This document shows positions 30,259 to 63,509 of a stretch of 64,000 nt of DNA, one piece after another (within the stretch, counting starts at the first letter, position 1; every line of letters starts with the position of its first letter). Source of the DNA: a virus; the IMG/VR virus record IMGVR_UViG_3300037086_000360, positions 124,001-188,000 of that record; one strand, written 5' to 3'. The translations under genes were made by a program, and so were the position numbers. Under the pieces are notes generated by a model, which did no database searches, was not told the origin of the DNA, and saw only the letters and a list, made by a program, of their open reading frames with translations.

Positions 30259-32187
30259 ATGTCTGATAACATACGTGTTCTGATTGTTGAAGATATTCGC
30301 ACAGATGCCGAACTTGTTGAACGTGAAGTTAAAGAAACTATTCCAAATAGCGAGTTTTTGGTAGTCGAAACACGAGAAGATTTTCTTACTGCATTGTCAG
30401 TCTTCAATCCTGACGCTGTGTTATCTGATTACAAGCTGCCAAATTTTGATGGTATGACGGCGCTACAATTGACACTCAAACACTCTCCATGCATTCCATT
30501 TATTTTAATTACAGGTTCGATGAATGAAGACATCGCAGTGAAGTGTATGAGAGCAGGCGCCTGGGATTATATAATCAAAGATCGGATTAAGCGTCTAGGA
30601 CCCGCAGTAGAAGGAGGATTGCAGCGTGCTTCTATGCTTCGAGAGCAAAAAATTGTTGAAGTAGCATTGAAGACCTCAGAACTTCAATATCGCCGTCTTT
30701 TTGAAACCGCAAAGGATGGTATTTTGATTCTTGATGCCAATACTGGAATGATTCTAGATGTGAATCCATTTTTAGTCGATCTGCTAGGATATTCATCCGA
30801 ATATTTTCTTGGAAAGAAGATATGGGAGATAGGCACTTTTAAAGATTCCATAGTCAATCAGGCTAATTTTGTAGAGTTGCAAGAAAATAAGTATGTGCGC
30901 TATGAAGACATGCCCCTGCAAACATCTCATGGCAAACTGGTCGATGTCGAGTTTGTCAGTAATACATATAATGTGGGTAATAAAAAATTGGCTCAGTGTA
31001 ACATTAGAGATATTAGTGCTCGGGTACTCTCTCTGAAAAAGAATCTGAGACTTGAAAACGAACTTCATCAATCTCAAAAAATGGAAGCTATTGGACAGTT
31101 GGCCGGTGGTGTGGCCCATGATTTCAACAATATGCTTGGAGTGATTCTTGGTCATACAGAAATGTCGATTAGTCAATTAAGTCCATCACATCCGCTCTAT
31201 GACACATTCCAAGAAATACACAAGGCAGCAAAACGTTCTGCACAATTGGTGAATAATCTCTTGGCCTTCGCGCGTAAACAACCAATCATGCCTCAAATAG
31301 CCGATGTGAATAATTCTATAGAAAATATAGAAAAAATGGTAAAACAAACAATTGGTGAAAACGTCAAACTAGAATGCCATTTCGATAAAAGTCTGTGGCC
31401 AATAAAAATAGATCCATCTCAATTTGATCAAATCATAATCAATTTGTCGGTAAACGCCCGAGACGCTATTGATGGAATCGGTAAAATAATCATTACAACA
31501 AAAAATGCTACTATGAATGATGAACTTATTGAAAGTTTTCATATAAAAGGTGATTATGTGCTCCTCGAGATAATTGATACTGGATGTGGTATGTCGAAAG
31601 AAGTTCAATCACATATTTTCGAGCCATTTTTTACTACCAAAGAAAAAGGCAAAGGGACTGGTTTGGGATTAGCTACCGTATACGGCATCGTTAAGCAGAA
31701 CAATGGATATATAAAAATAATCTCCGAAATCAATCGTGGAACCACTTTCAAAATATATTTTCCTCGATACAAAAATGGTATAAAACCGGAGCTAAAAACG
31801 ATAGAATCAATGAAAAGTGGAAGTGAGACTATTTTAATTGTAGAAGATGAACTTTCCCTCTTGAATCTCATTACAAAAATGCTCGAAAAACAAGGTTACA
31901 CTGTTGTGATAACAGATTCTCCAAAAGCAGCCATCTGTTTGGCTGAAAAGATTCATGGTAAGATTGATTTGCTTTTGACAGATGTAATAATGCCAGAGAT
32001 AAGTGGAAAAGACTTAATGAAAACTCTGTCCACGACTTATCCTAGAATCAAGAGCATATTTATGTCTGGTTATACAGAAAATATTATCAGTCAAAGTGGT
32101 TTGCTCGACAAAAATCTGAATTTCATTCAAAAGCCTTTTTCTTTAAAAGACCTTTCTATCTTAATAAGAAAAGTATTAGACGAATAG
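30259..32187 (+). CDS. Hybrid kinase: REC-PAS-HisKA-HATPase-REC
   Basis: N-terminal receiver (SDYKLPNFDG phosphosite, about residues 5-120), a PAS domain (YRRLFETAKDGILILDANTG), H box KMEAIGQLAGGVAHDFNNMLGV, ATPase boxes NARDAIDG, DTGCGMSKEVQSHIFEPFFTT and GTGLGLATVYGIVKQ, and a second receiver (LLLTDVIMPEISG). There is no membrane segment. It completes a cytosolic phosphorelay with the two previous genes. All motifs look functional. Confidence 0.93.
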   Translation: MSDNIRVLIVEDIRTDAELVEREVKETIPNSEFLVVETREDFLTALSVFNPDAVLSDYKLPNFDGMTALQLTLKHSPCIPFILITGSMNEDIAVKCMRAGAWDYIIKDRIKRLGPAVEGGLQRASMLREQKIVEVALKTSELQYRRLFETAKDGILILDANTGMILDVNPFLVDLLGYSSEYFLGKKIWEIGTFKDSIVNQANFVELQENKYVRYEDMPLQTSHGKLVDVEFVSNTYNVGNKKLAQCNIRDISARVLSLKKNLRLENELHQSQKMEAIGQLAGGVAHDFNNMLGVILGHTEMSISQLSPSHPLYDTFQEIHKAAKRSAQLVNNLLAFARKQPIMPQIADVNNSIENIEKMVKQTIGENVKLECHFDKSLWPIKIDPSQFDQIIINLSVNARDAIDGIGKIIITTKNATMNDELIESFHIKGDYVLLEIIDTGCGMSKEVQSHIFEPFFTTKEKGKGTGLGLATVYGIVKQNNGYIKIISEINRGTTFKIYFPRYKNGIKPELKTIESMKSGSETILIVEDELSLLNLITKMLEKQGYTVVITDSPKAAICLAEKIHGKIDLLLTDVIMPEISGKDLMKTLSTTYPRIKSIFMSGYTENIISQSGLLDKNLNFIQKPFSLKDLSILIRKVLDE

Positions 32188-51184: not shown

Positions 51185-51461
51185 GGCTCTGTAGCTCAGA
51201 TGGATAGAGCAACAGCCTTTGTTTTTCACGGAGCACCAGAGAGAAAACTTTCTGAGTGAATGTCTTCAAATTCGGTGGATCCCCTGAAAAGGGCAATACC
51301 GAGCCAAGCCCGAAAGGGAAGGTGTAGAGACTAGATGGAGACCACCTAAAGCATCCGCCATGGTGAAGGTATAGTCCAGCCAACAAACTCTTGGAGTGTC
51401 ACAGTAATGTGATGTTGGAGAGCTAAGCTGTGGGTCGCCCGTTCGAATCGGGCCAGAGTCA
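51185..51461 (+). tRNA. tRNA-Arg (TCT) interrupted by a group I intron
   Basis: Exons are 51185-51219 and 51423-51461. Joined, they give acceptor GGCTCTG/CAGAGTC, D stem GCTC/GAGC, anticodon stem ACAGC/GCTGT, loop CTTCTAA (anticodon TCT), T stem GCCCG/CGGGC and A73. The intron interrupts the anticodon after its first base, follows a U and ends in G, as group I introns do. Confidence 0.92.
51220..51422 (+). ncRNA. Group I intron, IC3-like, 203 nt
   Basis: The core closely resembles the Azoarcus tRNA-Ile intron: CAAATTCGGTGGAT, ATACCGAGCCAAGCC, AAGGTGTAGAGACTA and GAAGGTATAGTCC, in the same order. GACTA and TAGTC form P7, and ACC/GGT pairs form P3-P4-P6 elements. There is a P2-like hairpin CAGAGAG...CTTTCTG. 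No endonuclease frame is inside, so it is probably a small self-splicing ribozyme. Confidence 0.92.
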
Positions 51462-51473
51462 ATGTTTTCACAG

Positions 51474-51556
51474 GCGAGCGTACGACTAACTGGATAAGTT
51501 CCCAGATTTCTACTCTGGTGCCGCAAGGCTTGGGGGTTCGAGTCCCCCCGCTCGTT
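51474..51556 (+). tRNA. Class II tRNA with TCT-like anticodon
   Basis: Acceptor GCGAGCG/CGCTCGT (one G-U), anticodon stem CCAGA/TCTGG with loop TTTCTAC, variable arm TGCCGCAAGGCTT, T stem GGGGG/CCCCC. The long variable arm suggests Leu or Ser, but a seven-base loop gives TCT. CTA would need a shifted register. Identity unresolved. Confidence 0.75.
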
Positions 51557-51574
51557 TATTTATGGTAGGTCTAT

Positions 51575-60528: not shown

Positions 60529-60560
60529 TTTGCGCAAAGATCTTGCATATATTTATCTTA

Positions 60561-60633
60561 GTAGGCATGGAGAAATGGCGTCTCACGAGGCCCATAACCT
60601 CGGAATCGGAAGGGTTCGAATCCCTCGCCTGCC
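60561..60633 (+). tRNA. tRNA (CAT) with C33, copy 1
   Basis: D stem GAGA/TCTC, anticodon stem CGAGG/CCTCG with loop CCCATAA, T loop TTCGAAT. The acceptor GTAGGCA/CGCCTGC pairs at 6 of 7. Position 33 is C. GCATATATTTATCTTA ends directly before it. Confidence 0.68.
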
Positions 60634-60643
60634 ATCTTCACTT

Positions 60644-60719
60644 AGCAGGATAGAGGAGCCTGGTCGTCCTCACGAGGCCCATAACCTTGAGATCGTTGGT
60701 TCAAATCCAACTCCTGCCA
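60644..60719 (+). tRNA. tRNA (CAT) with C33, copy 2
   Basis: Acceptor AGCAGGA/TCCTGCC pairs at 6 of 7 with an A1-C72 mismatch (initiator tRNAs also lack a 1-72 pair, though with other bases). D stem GAGG/CCTC, anticodon stem CGAGG/CCTTG with loop CCCATAA, T stem GTTGG/CCAAC. Position 33 is C. Confidence 0.76.
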
Positions 60720-60722
60720 TAT

Positions 60723-60796
60723 CGACTCGTAGCGGGTGGTTCGGTTACATCATTAGGTAGATAACAACCGTCCATGTGATTCATGAGTCGTTTTTT
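60723..60796 (+). ncRNA. AGCGG-CATC RNA element 1 (no tRNA insert)
   Basis: P1 CGACTCGT/ATGAGTCG (60723-60730 with 60783-60790), AGCGG at 60731, P2 CGGTT/AACCG (60742-60746 with 60766-60770), ACATC, ATTC before P1', and a T6 tract after. The loop of P2 is only 19 nt. It begins 3 nt after a tRNA. Confidence 0.78.
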
Positions 60797-60806
60797 AGAA
60801 ATTTTG

Positions 60807-60891
60807 GAAGACTTGTAGCGGTTGGTCCAGTTACATCAAACTGAAAATTTGTAAAAACAACTGTTCCATAAAATCCACACGTCTTCTTTTT
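60807..60891 (+). ncRNA. AGCGG-CATC RNA element 2 (no tRNA insert)
   Basis: P1 GAAGACTTGT/ACACGTCTTC pairs at 9 of 10, AGCGG at 60817, P2 CAGTT/AACTG (60828-60832 with 60859-60863), ACATC, and ATCC before P1'; T5 follows. The short P2 loop is A-rich. Confidence 0.78.
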
Positions 60892-60912
60892 ACATTGCTT
60901 AAATCTTTTCAA

Positions 60913-61059
60913 AGGTTTGTAGCGGCGGAAAACAGTTACATCGGTTAACACAAAATCCTTCAGAGATTTCAAGTGCAAGTCCTATATGGTTCAAATCCGT
61001 AAGGCCGTCGTAAGACGAGTATTTCAACTGTTTCTGAATTTCACAGACCTTTTATTTTT
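60913..61059 (+). ncRNA. AGCGG-CATC RNA element 3 with tRNA-like insert
   Basis: P1 AGGTTTGT/ACAGACCT (60913-60920 with 61043-61050), AGCGG at 60921, P2 AACAGTT/AACTGTT (perfect 7 bp, 60931-60937 with 61026-61032), ACATC and TTTC before P1'. The insert has a T arm TATGG-TTCAAAT-CCGTA at 60985-61001 and then CGTC-GTAA-GACG, a capped acceptor-like stem. No D arm is evident, so the tRNA part seems degenerate. Confidence 0.72.
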
Positions 61060-61067
61060 GCATATTT
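61060..61067 (+). promoter_or_regulatory. GCATATTT motif after element 3
   Basis: Exact octamer directly after the T-rich end of element 3, 47 nt before ATG 61107. Confidence 0.4.
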
Positions 61068-61106
61068 CCTTTTGAAGAGCTGCACAGTGCGGATAAAGGA
61101 GATCAA

Positions 61107-61409
61107 ATGAGCGTAAAGATCGAGGGGCCGTGGGAGAGCAGTCACCTCATAGGTACAAAGCTCACCCATGAGCAGTATGCTTTTGTGATCCAGACCATTA
61201 ACAAATGGGCCACAGAGGTCCATGAAAGTGCTTCGAGTGCTGGACACGGTGAAGGTTATTTTAAGCAGCCGGTAATTACTGGAGAAACTAGAGCCATGGT
61301 TCGACAGCAGATGGTCGCCGACATTATGCACTCAGGGCTTCTTTATCGCATGATGACTGGTGACGGTCCTGTGACAGTAGAGGATCCAGTAGATAAGAAA
61401 ATAAAATAA
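61107..61409 (+). CDS. Hypothetical protein, 100 aa
   Basis: AAAGGAGATCAA precedes the ATG. A helical protein (AFVIQTINKWATEVHESAS, MVRQQMVADIMHSGLL) with no known domain. It lies between RNA elements 3 and 4. Confidence 0.68.
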   Translation: MSVKIEGPWESSHLIGTKLTHEQYAFVIQTINKWATEVHESASSAGHGEGYFKQPVITGETRAMVRQQMVADIMHSGLLYRMMTGDGPVTVEDPVDKKIK

Positions 61410-61413
61410 AGGG

Positions 61414-61560
61414 GAATGACGTAGCGGAGGAGAGAGTTTCATCGACTATTAATCGAGAGGTCGCTGGTTCGAGCCCAGCCAGAGGACGAAAGTCCGATGT
61501 AGCTCAGTTGGTAGAGCACTAAAAAAAGCTCTTTTCGTTATTCATGTTATTCTTCTTTTT
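61414..61560 (+). ncRNA. RNA element 4 carrying a permuted tRNA
   Basis: P1 GAATGACGT/ATGTTATTC (9 bp, two G-U; 61414-61422 with 61544-61552), AGCGG at 61423, P2 AGAG/CTCT (61433-61436 with 61529-61532), CATC, ATTC. Inside: 3' half 61443-61487 with anticodon hairpin CGA-CTATTAA-TCG, T arm GCTGG-TTCGAGC-CCAGC and CAGAGGA; then a GAAA loop; then 5' half 61493-61520 TCCGATG-TA-GCTC-AGTTGGTA-GAGC. The acceptor pairs at 5 of 7 (tandem G-A mismatches). The anticodon would be ATT. Confidence 0.78.
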
Positions 61561-61575
61561 GAAAGATTTAAATTG

Positions 61576-61677
61576 ATGTTTATAGGATCAGTTGTTAGAG
61601 TTATTATTCACGATTCAGAGGATTTCCTATTGAACGGAGTATACCAATTAACTGATTCGTTCAAAGGAGATCGATAA
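61576..61677 (+). CDS. Possible 33-codon protein upstream of RRM gene
   Basis: ATG 61576 (MFIGSVVRVIIHDSEDFLLNG) ends with TAA overlapping the RRM ATG (TAATG). The coupling supports it; the size keeps confidence low. Confidence 0.45.
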   Translation: MFIGSVVRVIIHDSEDFLLNGVYQLTDSFKGDR

Positions 61678-61961
61678 TGGCAAAGAAAATCTATGTTGGC
61701 AACATGAACTACAACACGAGTGAAGACTCTCTTAGGACACTTTTCACTCAATATGGTGAGGTAGTATCCGTCAACATCATCACAGACCGCGTTACTGGTC
61801 GTGCTAAGGGCTTCAGCTTTATAGAAATGGCAACCGAAGAAGCTGCAAAAGCAGCAATTGCTGCACTAAATGGCAAGGAAGTAGACGGCCGACAGTTGAA
61901 AGTGAATGAAGCTAATGATAAGCCACGGAACGATAGAGATGGTGGTTATAAAAGTCGTTAA
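61677..61961 (+). CDS. RRM RNA-binding protein
   Basis: A single RNA recognition motif: RNP2 KIYVGNMNY at residues 4-12, RNP1 RAKGFSFIEM at about 42-51, and a short basic tail KPRNDRDGGYKSR. It resembles the bacterial Rbp family of small RRM proteins. AAAGGAGATCG precedes it. It is encoded between RNA elements 4 and 5, so those RNAs are candidate ligands. Confidence 0.94.
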   Translation: MAKKIYVGNMNYNTSEDSLRTLFTQYGEVVSVNIITDRVTGRAKGFSFIEMATEEAAKAAIAALNGKEVDGRQLKVNEANDKPRNDRDGGYKSR

Positions 61962-61990
61962 TTATTGAAGACTTCTTACGGGTTAAAAAA

Positions 61991-62389
61991 GTGGCACCAA
62001 AGCAAGTGATAGTTGTAAGAAAAGATCTCAATATGAGAAAGGGCAAGATGGTAGCTCAAAGTTGTCATGCTTCAATGAAAGTGTTCTTCGATAGAATAAA
62101 ATTTGTAACTGATCATGATGGTAGAAAATACTACGAGATTCCATTTATCTCTTCTCAAGTAGATGAATGGATAGGCGGTCTTTTTACTAAGATTGTTGTT
62201 TCTGTTGATTCTGAGGAAGAAGTTCTTCAGCTTCAAAAGAAAGCGGATGAAGCAGGTATCATAAACGCAGTAGTGACTGATGCCGGACTCACAGAATTCC
62301 ATGGAATTCCAACCATCACTTGTATTTCAATTGGACCAGATGATCCAGAAAAAATTGACAAGATTACTGGAGAACTACCTCTTCTATGA
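61991..62389 (+). CDS. Peptidyl-tRNA hydrolase 2 (Pth2)
   Basis: KQVIVVRKDLNMRKGKMVAQSCHAS is the Pth2 signature, and VVTDAGLTEFHGIPTITCISIGP the second conserved block with the catalytic-type Asp. Pth2 is the archaeal and eukaryotic type of peptidyl-tRNA hydrolase, rare in bacteria and known in large phages. It releases peptides from stalled peptidyl-tRNAs. GTG 61991 start. Confidence 0.93.
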   Translation: MAPKQVIVVRKDLNMRKGKMVAQSCHASMKVFFDRIKFVTDHDGRKYYEIPFISSQVDEWIGGLFTKIVVSVDSEEEVLQLQKKADEAGIINAVVTDAGLTEFHGIPTITCISIGPDDPEKIDKITGELPLL

Positions 62390-62610
62390 TAGAAGAAGGG
62401 TTGGAATGGCTGTCGCAGACAGATGAAGAAATTGTCGAAGAAGCCAAACGACTTTTATGTCCGTTGCCATTTACTCATTTTAACAATGTAACCGTACTTG
62501 ATAAGAAGCACTTTCTTTTTTCTTTTGCCGACAATACATGCCAAATTGCAATTCTCGTAGGGGACATTGTTACGCTTGGACCAAGAATTCCGTTTGCTGA
62601 ACGTACATGA
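62386..62610 (+). CDS. Hypothetical protein with EEAKRLLCP
   Basis: Seventy-four residues: TDEEIVEEAKRLLCPLPFTHF and a beta-rich C-terminus (HFLFSFADNTCQIAILVGDIV). Overlaps Pth2 by 4 nt and precedes RNA element 5. Confidence 0.66.
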   Translation: MIEEGLEWLSQTDEEIVEEAKRLLCPLPFTHFNNVTVLDKKHFLFSFADNTCQIAILVGDIVTLGPRIPFAERT

Positions 62611-62630
62611 AAAAAGAAAATTAAGAAGGG

Positions 62631-62789
62631 AGATATGCAGCGGTAGATAGAGTTTCATCAACCCAAACCGGAAGTTGCCAGTTCGAATCTGGTCAAGTGA
62701 ATGCATCAATAAGTGGTTCACTTGTAGTTCAATTGGATAGAACGCCAGTCGTATTAGACTTTATTTAAAAAATTCGCATATTTTCTTTT
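62631..62789 (+). ncRNA. RNA element 5 carrying a permuted tRNA
   Basis: P1 AGATATGC/GCATATTT (62631-62638 with 62776-62783), AGCGG at 62639, P2 AGAGTTT/AGACTTT (62649-62655 with 62756-62762, two G-U), CATC, ATTC. Inside: 3' half 62660-62701 with CCC at the anticodon position, ACCGG, T arm GCCAG-TTCGAAT-CTGGT, CAAGTGA and A; a 16-nt linker; then 5' half 62718-62750 with TCACTTG, GTTC/GAAC D stem and CCAGT. The acceptor is a perfect 7 bp; the anticodon stem pairs at 4 of 5. Confidence 0.85.
62776..62783 (+). promoter_or_regulatory. GCATATTT motif forming P1' of element 5
   Basis: Exact octamer, here also the 3' strand of P1 of RNA element 5, starting 15 nt before ATG 62791. Confidence 0.4.
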
Positions 62790-62790
62790 A

Positions 62791-63027
62791 ATGGACGAAG
62801 CCCTTTGTGCTAAGAATCTAATGCTCGAAAGAGATTGTGCAAAATGTCGCATTGCGAGAGACACTTATCTCGATTTTGTCGATAATTGGAAACAAATCAA
62901 TGAAGAGCTTCAGAAGCAAGGATGCATTGGTTCATTTAAATTGAAATCAGATGGGACCGAATATGAGTTTTGGGGTCCGCAAGTTGGAGTTTGTGATCAC
63001 TACATCCCTTTCAAAGGGAAAGAATAA
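62791..63027 (+). CDS. AKNLM cysteine-cluster protein
   Basis: ALCAKNLMLERDCAKCRIARD at the N-terminus and VGVCDHYIPFKG at the C-terminus. A further member of the AKNLL-plus-C-x2-C class. Lies between RNA elements 5 and 6. Confidence 0.68.
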   Translation: MDEALCAKNLMLERDCAKCRIARDTYLDFVDNWKQINEELQKQGCIGSFKLKSDGTEYEFWGPQVGVCDHYIPFKGKE

Positions 63028-63056
63028 GTGATTTCGACATAGAATAAAGATAATAC

Positions 63057-63210
63057 AGTATGCAGCGGGGTTAGAGTTACATCAATAGGAACCGGCGCCG
63101 TAAGGCATGTTGGTTCGAGACCAACCTCACTCAGTAATGGGTGAGTGGTGAAATTGGCAGACACACTGGTAAAAGAAAAAACTCTTTCTAGAATTCGCAT
63201 ACTATTTTAT
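63057..63210 (+). ncRNA. RNA element 6 carrying a permuted tRNA-Leu
   Basis: P1 AGTATGC/GCATACT (perfect, 63057-63063 with 63197-63203), AGCGG at 63064, P2 AGAGTT/AACTCT (perfect, 63073-63078 with 63180-63185), ACATC, ATTC. Inside: 3' half 63086-63133 with TAG-GA, ACCGG, a Leu-type variable arm CGCCGTAAGGCAT, T arm GTTGG-TTCGAGA-CCAAC, CTCACTC and A; a 5-nt linker; then 5' half 63139-63170 GGGTGAG-TG-GTGAAATTGGCAGACACA-CTGGT. Acceptor 7 of 7, anticodon stem 5 of 5 (one G-U each). Confidence 0.88.
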
Positions 63211-63242
63211 AAAGTCGCGGGAAACCGCAAAAGGAGAACAAA

Positions 63243-63509
63243 ATGTTTGACATCGTATTGGCTGCCATTTCAGCAGTCATCGCCGTCGGAGTAATCCAGT
63301 TCCTCAAGAACGTTTGGAAGACGGCTCCTCGCTGGGTATGGCAAGTCGCTCTACCAGTCCTAGTCGTTGCACTAGTATTGGTTCTGTCACTCATTCCGGC
63401 ATGGCTAGTGGTTATGCTTCTTGCTTTGGCTATTGCCCAGCTTGGGTATGAGACCATTGTCAAGTTGCTCATTAGCGTCTACCAGAAGTTTTTCCCACCA
63501 AAGGCCTAA
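63243..63509 (+). CDS. Small membrane protein, possibly holin-like
   Basis: AAAGGAGAACAAA precedes the ATG. A short N-terminal helix, a hydrophilic linker (KNVWKTAPRW) and two adjacent hydrophobic segments (QVALPVLVVALVLVLSLI, WLVVMLLALAIAQLGY), then a basic C-terminus. The topology fits small holin-like or channel proteins, but there is no lysis gene nearby. Confidence 0.68.
   Translation: MFDIVLAAISAVIAVGVIQFLKNVWKTAPRWVWQVALPVLVVALVLVLSLIPAWLVVMLLALAIAQLGYETIVKLLISVYQKFFPPKA

What the first reader, a model, noticed from the sequence alone, without database searches (positions are those of the whole stretch)
62631..62789. Second permuted tRNA with a perfect 7-bp acceptor inside element 5
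CAAGTGA-A ends the 3' half at 62701 and TCACTTG begins the 5' half at 62718; the 7 bp are perfect Watson-Crick pairs. T arm and D arm are canonical. The triplet at the anticodon position is CCC, directly after CATCAA as in element 6. The flanking helices are again preserved with different sequences, so this is not a simple copy of element 6. One mismatch in the anticodon stem leaves the identity open.
Basis: partly seen in the sequence, partly recalled or inferred. Interest (0 to 1): 0.9.

Follow-up and report, generated by a model that had tools for sequence, protein, structure and literature searches.

The report
Phage Y RNA with permuted tRNA-like domain
The 'inside-out tRNA' is real, but it is almost certainly not a tRNA gene: it is the tRNA-mimicking head of a Y RNA, a small RNA that binds the ring protein Ro60, and it belongs to an unusually large set of such RNAs in one large phage-like virus.

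Summary
The sequence observation holds. CAAGTGA (62694-62700) + A62701 and TCACTTG (62718-62724) form a perfect 7-bp acceptor stem between a canonical T arm (62677-62693) and D arm (62727-62743), in permuted order. This cargo lies inside a conserved outer structure: P1 ATATGC/GCATAT, AGCGG, P2, CATCAA. The outer structure occurs eight times in the 250-kb virus, always on one strand: six copies in the window, two at 77 kb. Rfam finds YrlA (bacterial Y RNA) below its cut-off in element 5 (30.9 bits, E 4e-4) and element 4 (33.1 bits, E 9e-5). The virus encodes a TROVE/Ro60 protein. Element 4 has unannotated counterparts just upstream of TROVE genes in Caulobacter and Xanthomonas phages. In 80 IMG/VR TROVE loci, 51 high-scoring permuted tRNA-like domains lie on the TROVE strand and none on the other; 2.2 Mb of control sequence gave none. 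Element 5 is therefore a phage Y RNA with a tRNA-like domain, a known kind, not a tRNA awaiting splicing or circularisation. It has no U33-bearing anticodon loop; 'CCC' has no standing as an anticodon. Possibly new: the eight-RNA set, a tRNA-Leu-like head, and the frequent retention in related Y RNAs of a normal-looking anticodon hairpin.

The parts
62632..62789 (+). Element 5 (E5): Y RNA with permuted tRNA-like domain, ending in a T-rich tail
62633..62638 (+). E5 P1 5' strand ATATGC
   Evidence: pairs with 62776-62781
62776..62781 (+). E5 P1 3' strand GCATAT
62639..62643 (+). Conserved AGCGG of the putative Ro60-binding internal loop
   Evidence: eight copies in G000
62648..62654 (+). E5 P2 5' strand TAGAGTT (pairs with 62757-62763)
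62757..62763 (+). E5 P2 3' strand GACTTTA
62656..62661 (+). Conserved CATCAA between P2 and the tRNA-like domain
62667..62671 (+). Anticodon-stem-like 3' strand ACCGG (pairs with CCAGT 62745-62749, one A-C mismatch)
62677..62693 (+). T arm of the tRNA-like domain
62694..62700 (+). Acceptor 3' strand CAAGTGA
62718..62724 (+). Acceptor 5' strand TCACTTG (7/7 pairs; closed by a 17-nt loop without CCA)
62727..62743 (+). D arm of the tRNA-like domain
60723..60790 (+). Element 1: short Y RNA without a tRNA-like domain (P1 CGACTC/GAGTCG, then T6)
60807..60886 (+). Element 2: short Y RNA without a tRNA-like domain (P1 GAAGAC/GTCTTC, then T5)
60911..61052 (+). Element 3: Y RNA with a degenerate head (T-arm-like hairpin only)
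61415..61551 (+). Element 4: Y RNA with a tRNA-Asn-like permuted domain that keeps the anticodon hairpin CGA-CTATTAA-TCG; counterparts in Caulobacter and Xanthomonas phages
63057..63203 (+). Element 6: Y RNA with a tRNA-Leu-like permuted domain with long variable arm

Best explanation
Element 5 is a phage-encoded Y RNA of the YrlA type. Its 5' and 3' ends pair (P1, internal loop with AGCGG, P2) to make the stem that should dock on the phage's Ro60 (TROVE) protein. The loop of that stem holds a tRNA-like head in the only order that such a tether allows: T arm, acceptor stem closed by a loop, D arm. The RNA is most likely used as it is, without splicing. Ro60 holds the stem, and the head either tethers the ring to an RNA-processing enzyme (PNPase is the published bacterial case) or offers a tRNA surface to tRNA-recognising enzymes. 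In a phage, the head could plausibly mask phage tRNAs from nucleases, or steer RNA decay. Shown here: sequence, architecture, Ro60 gene in the same virus, and linkage to Ro60 across phages and bacteria. Inferred: transcription, Ro60 binding and the effector role.
For: Rfam RF02553 (YrlA) aligns to E4 (33.1 bits, E 9.4e-5) and E5 (30.9 bits, E 4.1e-4) with the same T-acceptor-loop-acceptor-D order. A TROVE gene is in the same virus at G000 81,126-82,778 (E 1.1e-11), about 4 kb from two further Y elements at 77 kb. Eight copies of AGCGG-N-GTTNCATC lie on one strand, with none in the reversed-pattern control. The E4 counterpart and sister RNAs lie just upstream of TROVE genes in CcrColossus, CcrPW and Xanthomonas phage Olaya. 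Similar Y RNAs lie by TROVE in Brevundimonas, Rhizobium, Streptomyces and Arthrobacter phages and phage G. In 80 IMG/VR TROVE loci there are 51 strong permuted domains on the TROVE strand and 0 on the other; 0 in 2.2 Mb control. In bacterial TROVE loci 57 against 0. The YrlA fold (end-paired Rsr-binding stem plus tRNA-like D, T and acceptor arms, PNPase tethering) is described in PMC8394870.
Against: Both Rfam hits are below the family's gathering score (69 bits), though so are the TROVE-adjacent RNAs of other phages. The E1-E6 array lies about 104 kb from the TROVE gene of this virus. The Ro60-stem motif here (AGCGG...GTTNCATCAA) was matched to YrlA by architecture, not by strong sequence similarity. 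The minimum-energy fold of E5 lacks the T arm. No expression or binding data.
Confidence: 0.9

Rival explanations
1. A permuted tRNA gene as in Cyanidioschyzon or Thermofilum: the flanks are cut off, the two ends at the anticodon are ligated to a circle, and RNase P and 3' processing open the acceptor to give a working tRNA.
For: Permuted order and perfect acceptor stem. The virus has an RNA ligase of the Rnl2 type (PF09414, E 1.3e-25).
Against: Flanks match a Y RNA and some copies of the flanks carry only short loops. E5 has no U33 and no defined anticodon; re-joining gives Gly, Trp, Leu or Met by choice of cut. 27 of 61 related domains have the acceptor capped by a GNRA/UNCG tetraloop and only 6 of 61 have CCA after it. 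By inspection there is no 3-nt bulge / 4-bp helix / 3-nt bulge at the junction. Orthologous Y RNAs of two sister phages differ in the anticodon (CUG against UAG). No RtcB in the virus.
Confidence: 0.04
2. A two-piece tRNA: RNase P and 3' enzymes cut the acceptor loop, CCA is added, and the two halves stay together through P1/P2 as in two-piece tmRNA; the product is charged with an amino acid.
For: Many related Y RNAs keep a normal anticodon hairpin (U33 in 39 of 40); the 17-nt acceptor loop of E5 is long enough to be cut.
Against: E5 itself lacks an anticodon loop. The Ro60 stem leaves at the anticodon stem and would obstruct decoding. Many relatives have tetraloop-capped acceptors.
Confidence: 0.03
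3. Permuted group I intron (PIE) or permuted tmRNA.
For: Permuted exons; a group I intron exists elsewhere in the window (51215-51396), and permuted tmRNA is found near TROVE in Brevundimonas phages.
Against: No group I core or tmRNA hit at E1-E6; the flanks (about 35 and 40 nt) are too short for a group I core.
Confidence: 0.01
4. Remnants of two ordinary tRNA genes that came to lie side by side by chance.
For: Tandem normal tRNAs do trigger the descriptor now and then.
Against: Complementary acceptor across the two halves, paired flanks, eight copies of the outer structure, and the same permuted order in unrelated phages and bacteria.
Confidence: 0.01

Closest known systems
YrlA, bacterial Y RNA (Rfam RF02553; Salmonella YrlA structure PDB 6CU1)
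   Same: End-paired stem with internal loop; loop holds T arm, closed acceptor stem and D arm in permuted order; TROVE/Ro60 gene in the same genome.
   Different: Ro60-stem sequence differs (AGCGG...CATCAA); longer 7-bp acceptor with 17-nt loop; one of eight in one virus; scores below the Rfam cut-off.
YrlB-type Y RNA without tRNA-like domain (encoded in the rsr-yrlBA-rtcBA operon; absence of the domain is from my own knowledge)
   Same: Elements 1, 2 and the 77.1-kb copy have the stem but only a short loop.
Y RNA arrays of CcrColossus, CcrPW, Brevundimonas, Rhizobium RHph_TM and Xanthomonas Olaya phages
   Same: Several Y RNAs in tandem, heads resembling different tRNAs, next to TROVE.
   Different: Not annotated as Y RNAs in those records; parts are annotated as tRNA-Gln (CcrColossus) or tRNA-Ser (Gurke, Kikimora). 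In this virus the main array is far from the TROVE gene.
Permuted tRNA genes of Cyanidioschyzon merolae and Thermofilum pendens (own knowledge)
   Same: 3' half precedes 5' half; intact acceptor stem.
   Different: No junction motif, no defined anticodon loop, flanks form a putative protein-binding stem.

Membership tests
YrlA / bacterial Y RNA | 5' and 3' ends pair to a stem with conserved internal loop | tested here: met
   P1 6/6 pairs in all eight copies, 1 of 40,320 re-pairings as good; P2 39/40; AGCGG and CATC conserved
YrlA / bacterial Y RNA | tRNA-like domain: T arm, looped acceptor stem, D arm in that order | tested here: met
YrlA / bacterial Y RNA | Ro60 (TROVE) gene in the same genome, usually adjacent | tested here: met
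   TROVE at G000 81.1-82.8 kb; near elements 7/8 but about 104 kb from E5
YrlA / bacterial Y RNA | Match to Rfam RF02553 | tested here: inconclusive
   30.9 bits against a gathering score of 69, E 4e-4 in a 2.5-kb scan
YrlA / bacterial Y RNA | Binds Ro60; modified by tRNA enzymes; may bind PNPase | not testable with these tools
   needs experiment
Permuted tRNA gene | 3' half before 5' half with pairing acceptor | tested here: met
Permuted tRNA gene | Re-joined halves give a canonical anticodon loop with U33 | tested here: not met
   E5: A at the U33 position; identity depends on cut
Permuted tRNA gene | Bulge-helix-bulge at the junction | tested here: not met
   12-nt/7-nt internal loop between P2 and the anticodon-like stem by inspection
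Permuted group I intron | Group I catalytic core split around the exons | tested here: not met
   no Rfam group I hit at E1-E6
Permuted tmRNA | tmRNA core and tag reading frame | tested here: not met
   no tmRNA hit in the window or in 60700-63250

The most novel reading that the evidence does not exclude
Y RNAs of phages and bacteria repeatedly carry an almost complete, permuted copy of different tRNAs, often with a well-formed anticodon loop, and act as an array of tRNA decoys held on Ro60, for example to absorb anticodon nucleases aimed at the phage's tRNAs, with tRNA identities swapped in and out as the threat changes. Element 5 would be one, partly degenerate, member.
Probability: 0.12. 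Interest if true: 0.75.

Novelty: new member of a known kind. Interest (0 to 1): 0.38.

Why it matters
It turns an apparent permuted viral tRNA into a recognisable Ro60-Y RNA system, explains six elements of the window at once, and shows that tRNA annotators mislabel parts of such RNAs. The survey adds a testable lead. Of 61 distinct Ro60-linked permuted domains in phage and viral loci, 40 keep an anticodon hairpin with U33 (39/40), and 37 of 57 in bacterial loci do. Published descriptions read here mention only the D, T and acceptor arms (PMC8394870), so what the anticodon loop is for is open and can be tested.

Tried and rejected
TROVE protein of this virus as sole query in IMG/VR: no relatives, so the Caulobacter-type alignment was used. 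Re-joining with ARAGORN: all 40 hairpin-type domains are called tRNA and 0 of 40 shuffles, but ARAGORN also accepts many arbitrary joins of E5 and E6, so this says little about the anticodon. Permuted intron, permuted tmRNA and tandem-tRNA readings were rejected. RNA ligase Rnl1 search had a silent control and is uninformative.

Full report
Observation. All stated bases and coordinates are correct. Element 5 holds, in order, P1 5' strand (62633-62638), AGCGG (62639-62643), P2 5' strand (62648-62654), CATCAA (62656-62661), an anticodon-stem-like strand ACCGG (62667-62671), T arm (62677-62693), acceptor 3' strand (62694-62700), a 17-nt loop, acceptor 5' strand (62718-62724), D arm (62727-62743), CCAGT (62745-62749), P2 3' strand (62757-62763) and P1 3' strand (62776-62781) followed by a T-rich tail. 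The acceptor pairs 7/7. A descriptor for permuted tRNA-like domains gives element 5 the top score of 16; 2.2 Mb of control viral sequence gives no hit at 15 or more.

The repeated outer structure. The window lies in a virus record of 250,111 bases. The motif AGCGG-N4-16-GTTNCATC occurs eight times in it, all on the + strand, with none for the reversed control pattern. Six copies are in the window (E1-E6), two at 77 kb. The P1 strands differ from copy to copy but pair 6/6 in all eight, a result matched by 1 of 40,320 shufflings of partners (positions were picked by eye, so this is illustrative). The cargo differs: E1, E2 and the 77.1-kb copy have short loops, E3 a degenerate head with a T-arm-like hairpin, the 77.2-kb copy three simple hairpins, E4 a tRNA-Asn-like domain, E5 an unassigned one, and E6 a tRNA-Leu-like one with a long variable arm.

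Identification. A DNA search found E4 (61421-61525) at 84% identity in Caulobacter phage CcrColossus, in CcrPW and in Xanthomonas phages, unannotated and just upstream of a TROVE (Ro60-like) gene. Rfam's YrlA model aligns to E4 and E5 with E-values of 9.4e-5 and 4.1e-4, below its gathering score, in exactly the T-acceptor-loop-acceptor-D order. It also aligns, likewise below the gathering score, to the TROVE-adjacent RNAs of Caulobacter, Xanthomonas, Brevundimonas, Rhizobium, Streptomyces and Arthrobacter phages and phage G. The virus of the window has its own TROVE gene at 81.1-82.8 kb, about 4 kb from the two Y elements at 77 kb. According to PMC8394870, YrlA is a 90-150-nt RNA whose end-paired stem binds Rsr/Ro60 and whose tRNA-like domain resembles D, T and acceptor arms and binds PNPase. 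Phages with YrlA are already mentioned in the literature (PMC7765460), and TROVE proteins in jumbo phages in PMC7824862.

Survey. In 80 IMG/VR loci around TROVE genes, 41 carry at least one strong permuted domain, 51 in all, every one on the TROVE strand; by eye two of the 51 (L156:2509, L158:732) are ordinary tandem tRNAs. After requiring the Y motif and adding the phage records, 61 distinct domains remain, with a median distance of 238 bases upstream of TROVE. In 80 bacterial TROVE loci, 57 domains lie on the TROVE strand and none on the other. The permuted order is thus a standing property of Ro60-linked RNAs, not an accident of this window.

Is it a tRNA? For element 5, no: position 33 is A, the five-base stem has a mismatch, and re-joining yields Gly, Trp, Leu or Met depending on the cut. 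There is no CCA. 27 of 61 relatives have their acceptor sealed by a GNRA or UNCG tetraloop, and 6 of 61 have CCA after the acceptor strand. The virus has an Rnl2-type RNA ligase, so ligation cannot be excluded in principle; no RtcB was found.

A side result. 40 of the 61 phage and viral domains keep a hairpin at the anticodon place: the 3' half starts inside the anticodon stem (ACUUCG-A/C), followed by a 7-nt loop with U33 in 39, a purine at 37 in 37, and A38 in 37 (U33 was not used in the selection). The triplets include GUU, UGU, UGG, CUG and GCU. Bacterial loci show the same: 37 of 57, U33 in 36. Element 4 belongs to this type, element 5 does not. Between CcrColossus and CcrPW one such RNA differs by CUG against UAG, which speaks against decoding. 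Whether this hairpin has been described is unknown to me; the main Y RNA papers could not be read.

Mechanism. Most likely the RNA is transcribed, folds with P1/P2 as a handle for the phage's Ro60, and presents a tRNA-shaped head. By analogy with Deinococcus and Salmonella the head tethers or gates an RNA-degrading or tRNA-modifying enzyme. A decoy role against anticodon nucleases has been suggested for YrlA (PMC7790460) and would fit a phage rich in tRNAs. Steps shown: architecture, gene linkage, recurrence. Steps inferred: transcription, Ro60 binding, effector function.

Verdict.

Noticed in passing
61677-61961 and 61991-62389: An RRM RNA-binding protein (Pfam E 1.7e-24) and a PTH2-type peptidyl-tRNA hydrolase (E 2.7e-32) are encoded between elements 4 and 5.
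   Followed up: partly
51215-51557: A group I intron match (58.8 bits) lies directly upstream of tRNA-Arg 51473-51557.
   Followed up: no
L011:5318-5568 (G000 about 193.1-193.4 kb): Two suppressor-like tRNAs with anticodon CUA and one tRNA with a four-base anticodon (gaaa) as called by ARAGORN.
   Followed up: no
L147-L226, L233-L312, L012-L014, L137-L145: Most Ro60-linked Y RNAs keep a tRNA-like anticodon hairpin with U33, of many identities; sister phages differ in the anticodon.
   Followed up: partly
L012:2171-2238; L138:4811-4885; L230:1011-1085: Annotated tRNA-Gln and tRNA-Ser genes of Caulobacter and Brevundimonas phages overlap Y RNAs and are probably mislabelled.
   Followed up: partly
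L137:8791-9046 and L138:8387-8732: Brevundimonas phages Kabachok and Gurke carry permuted tmRNA genes above Rfam's cut-off, not annotated in the records.
   Followed up: no
60559-60720: Two adjacent similar tRNA-Met(CAT) genes directly upstream of the Y RNA array; the second matches tRNA-Met of phAPEC8-like Escherichia phages at 83%.
   Followed up: no
30259-32187: A hybrid sensor histidine kinase / response regulator with PAS domains in a virus record.
   Followed up: no
G000:77159 onwards (L010:3160): A Y-type stem whose head is three simple hairpins instead of a tRNA-like domain.
   Followed up: no
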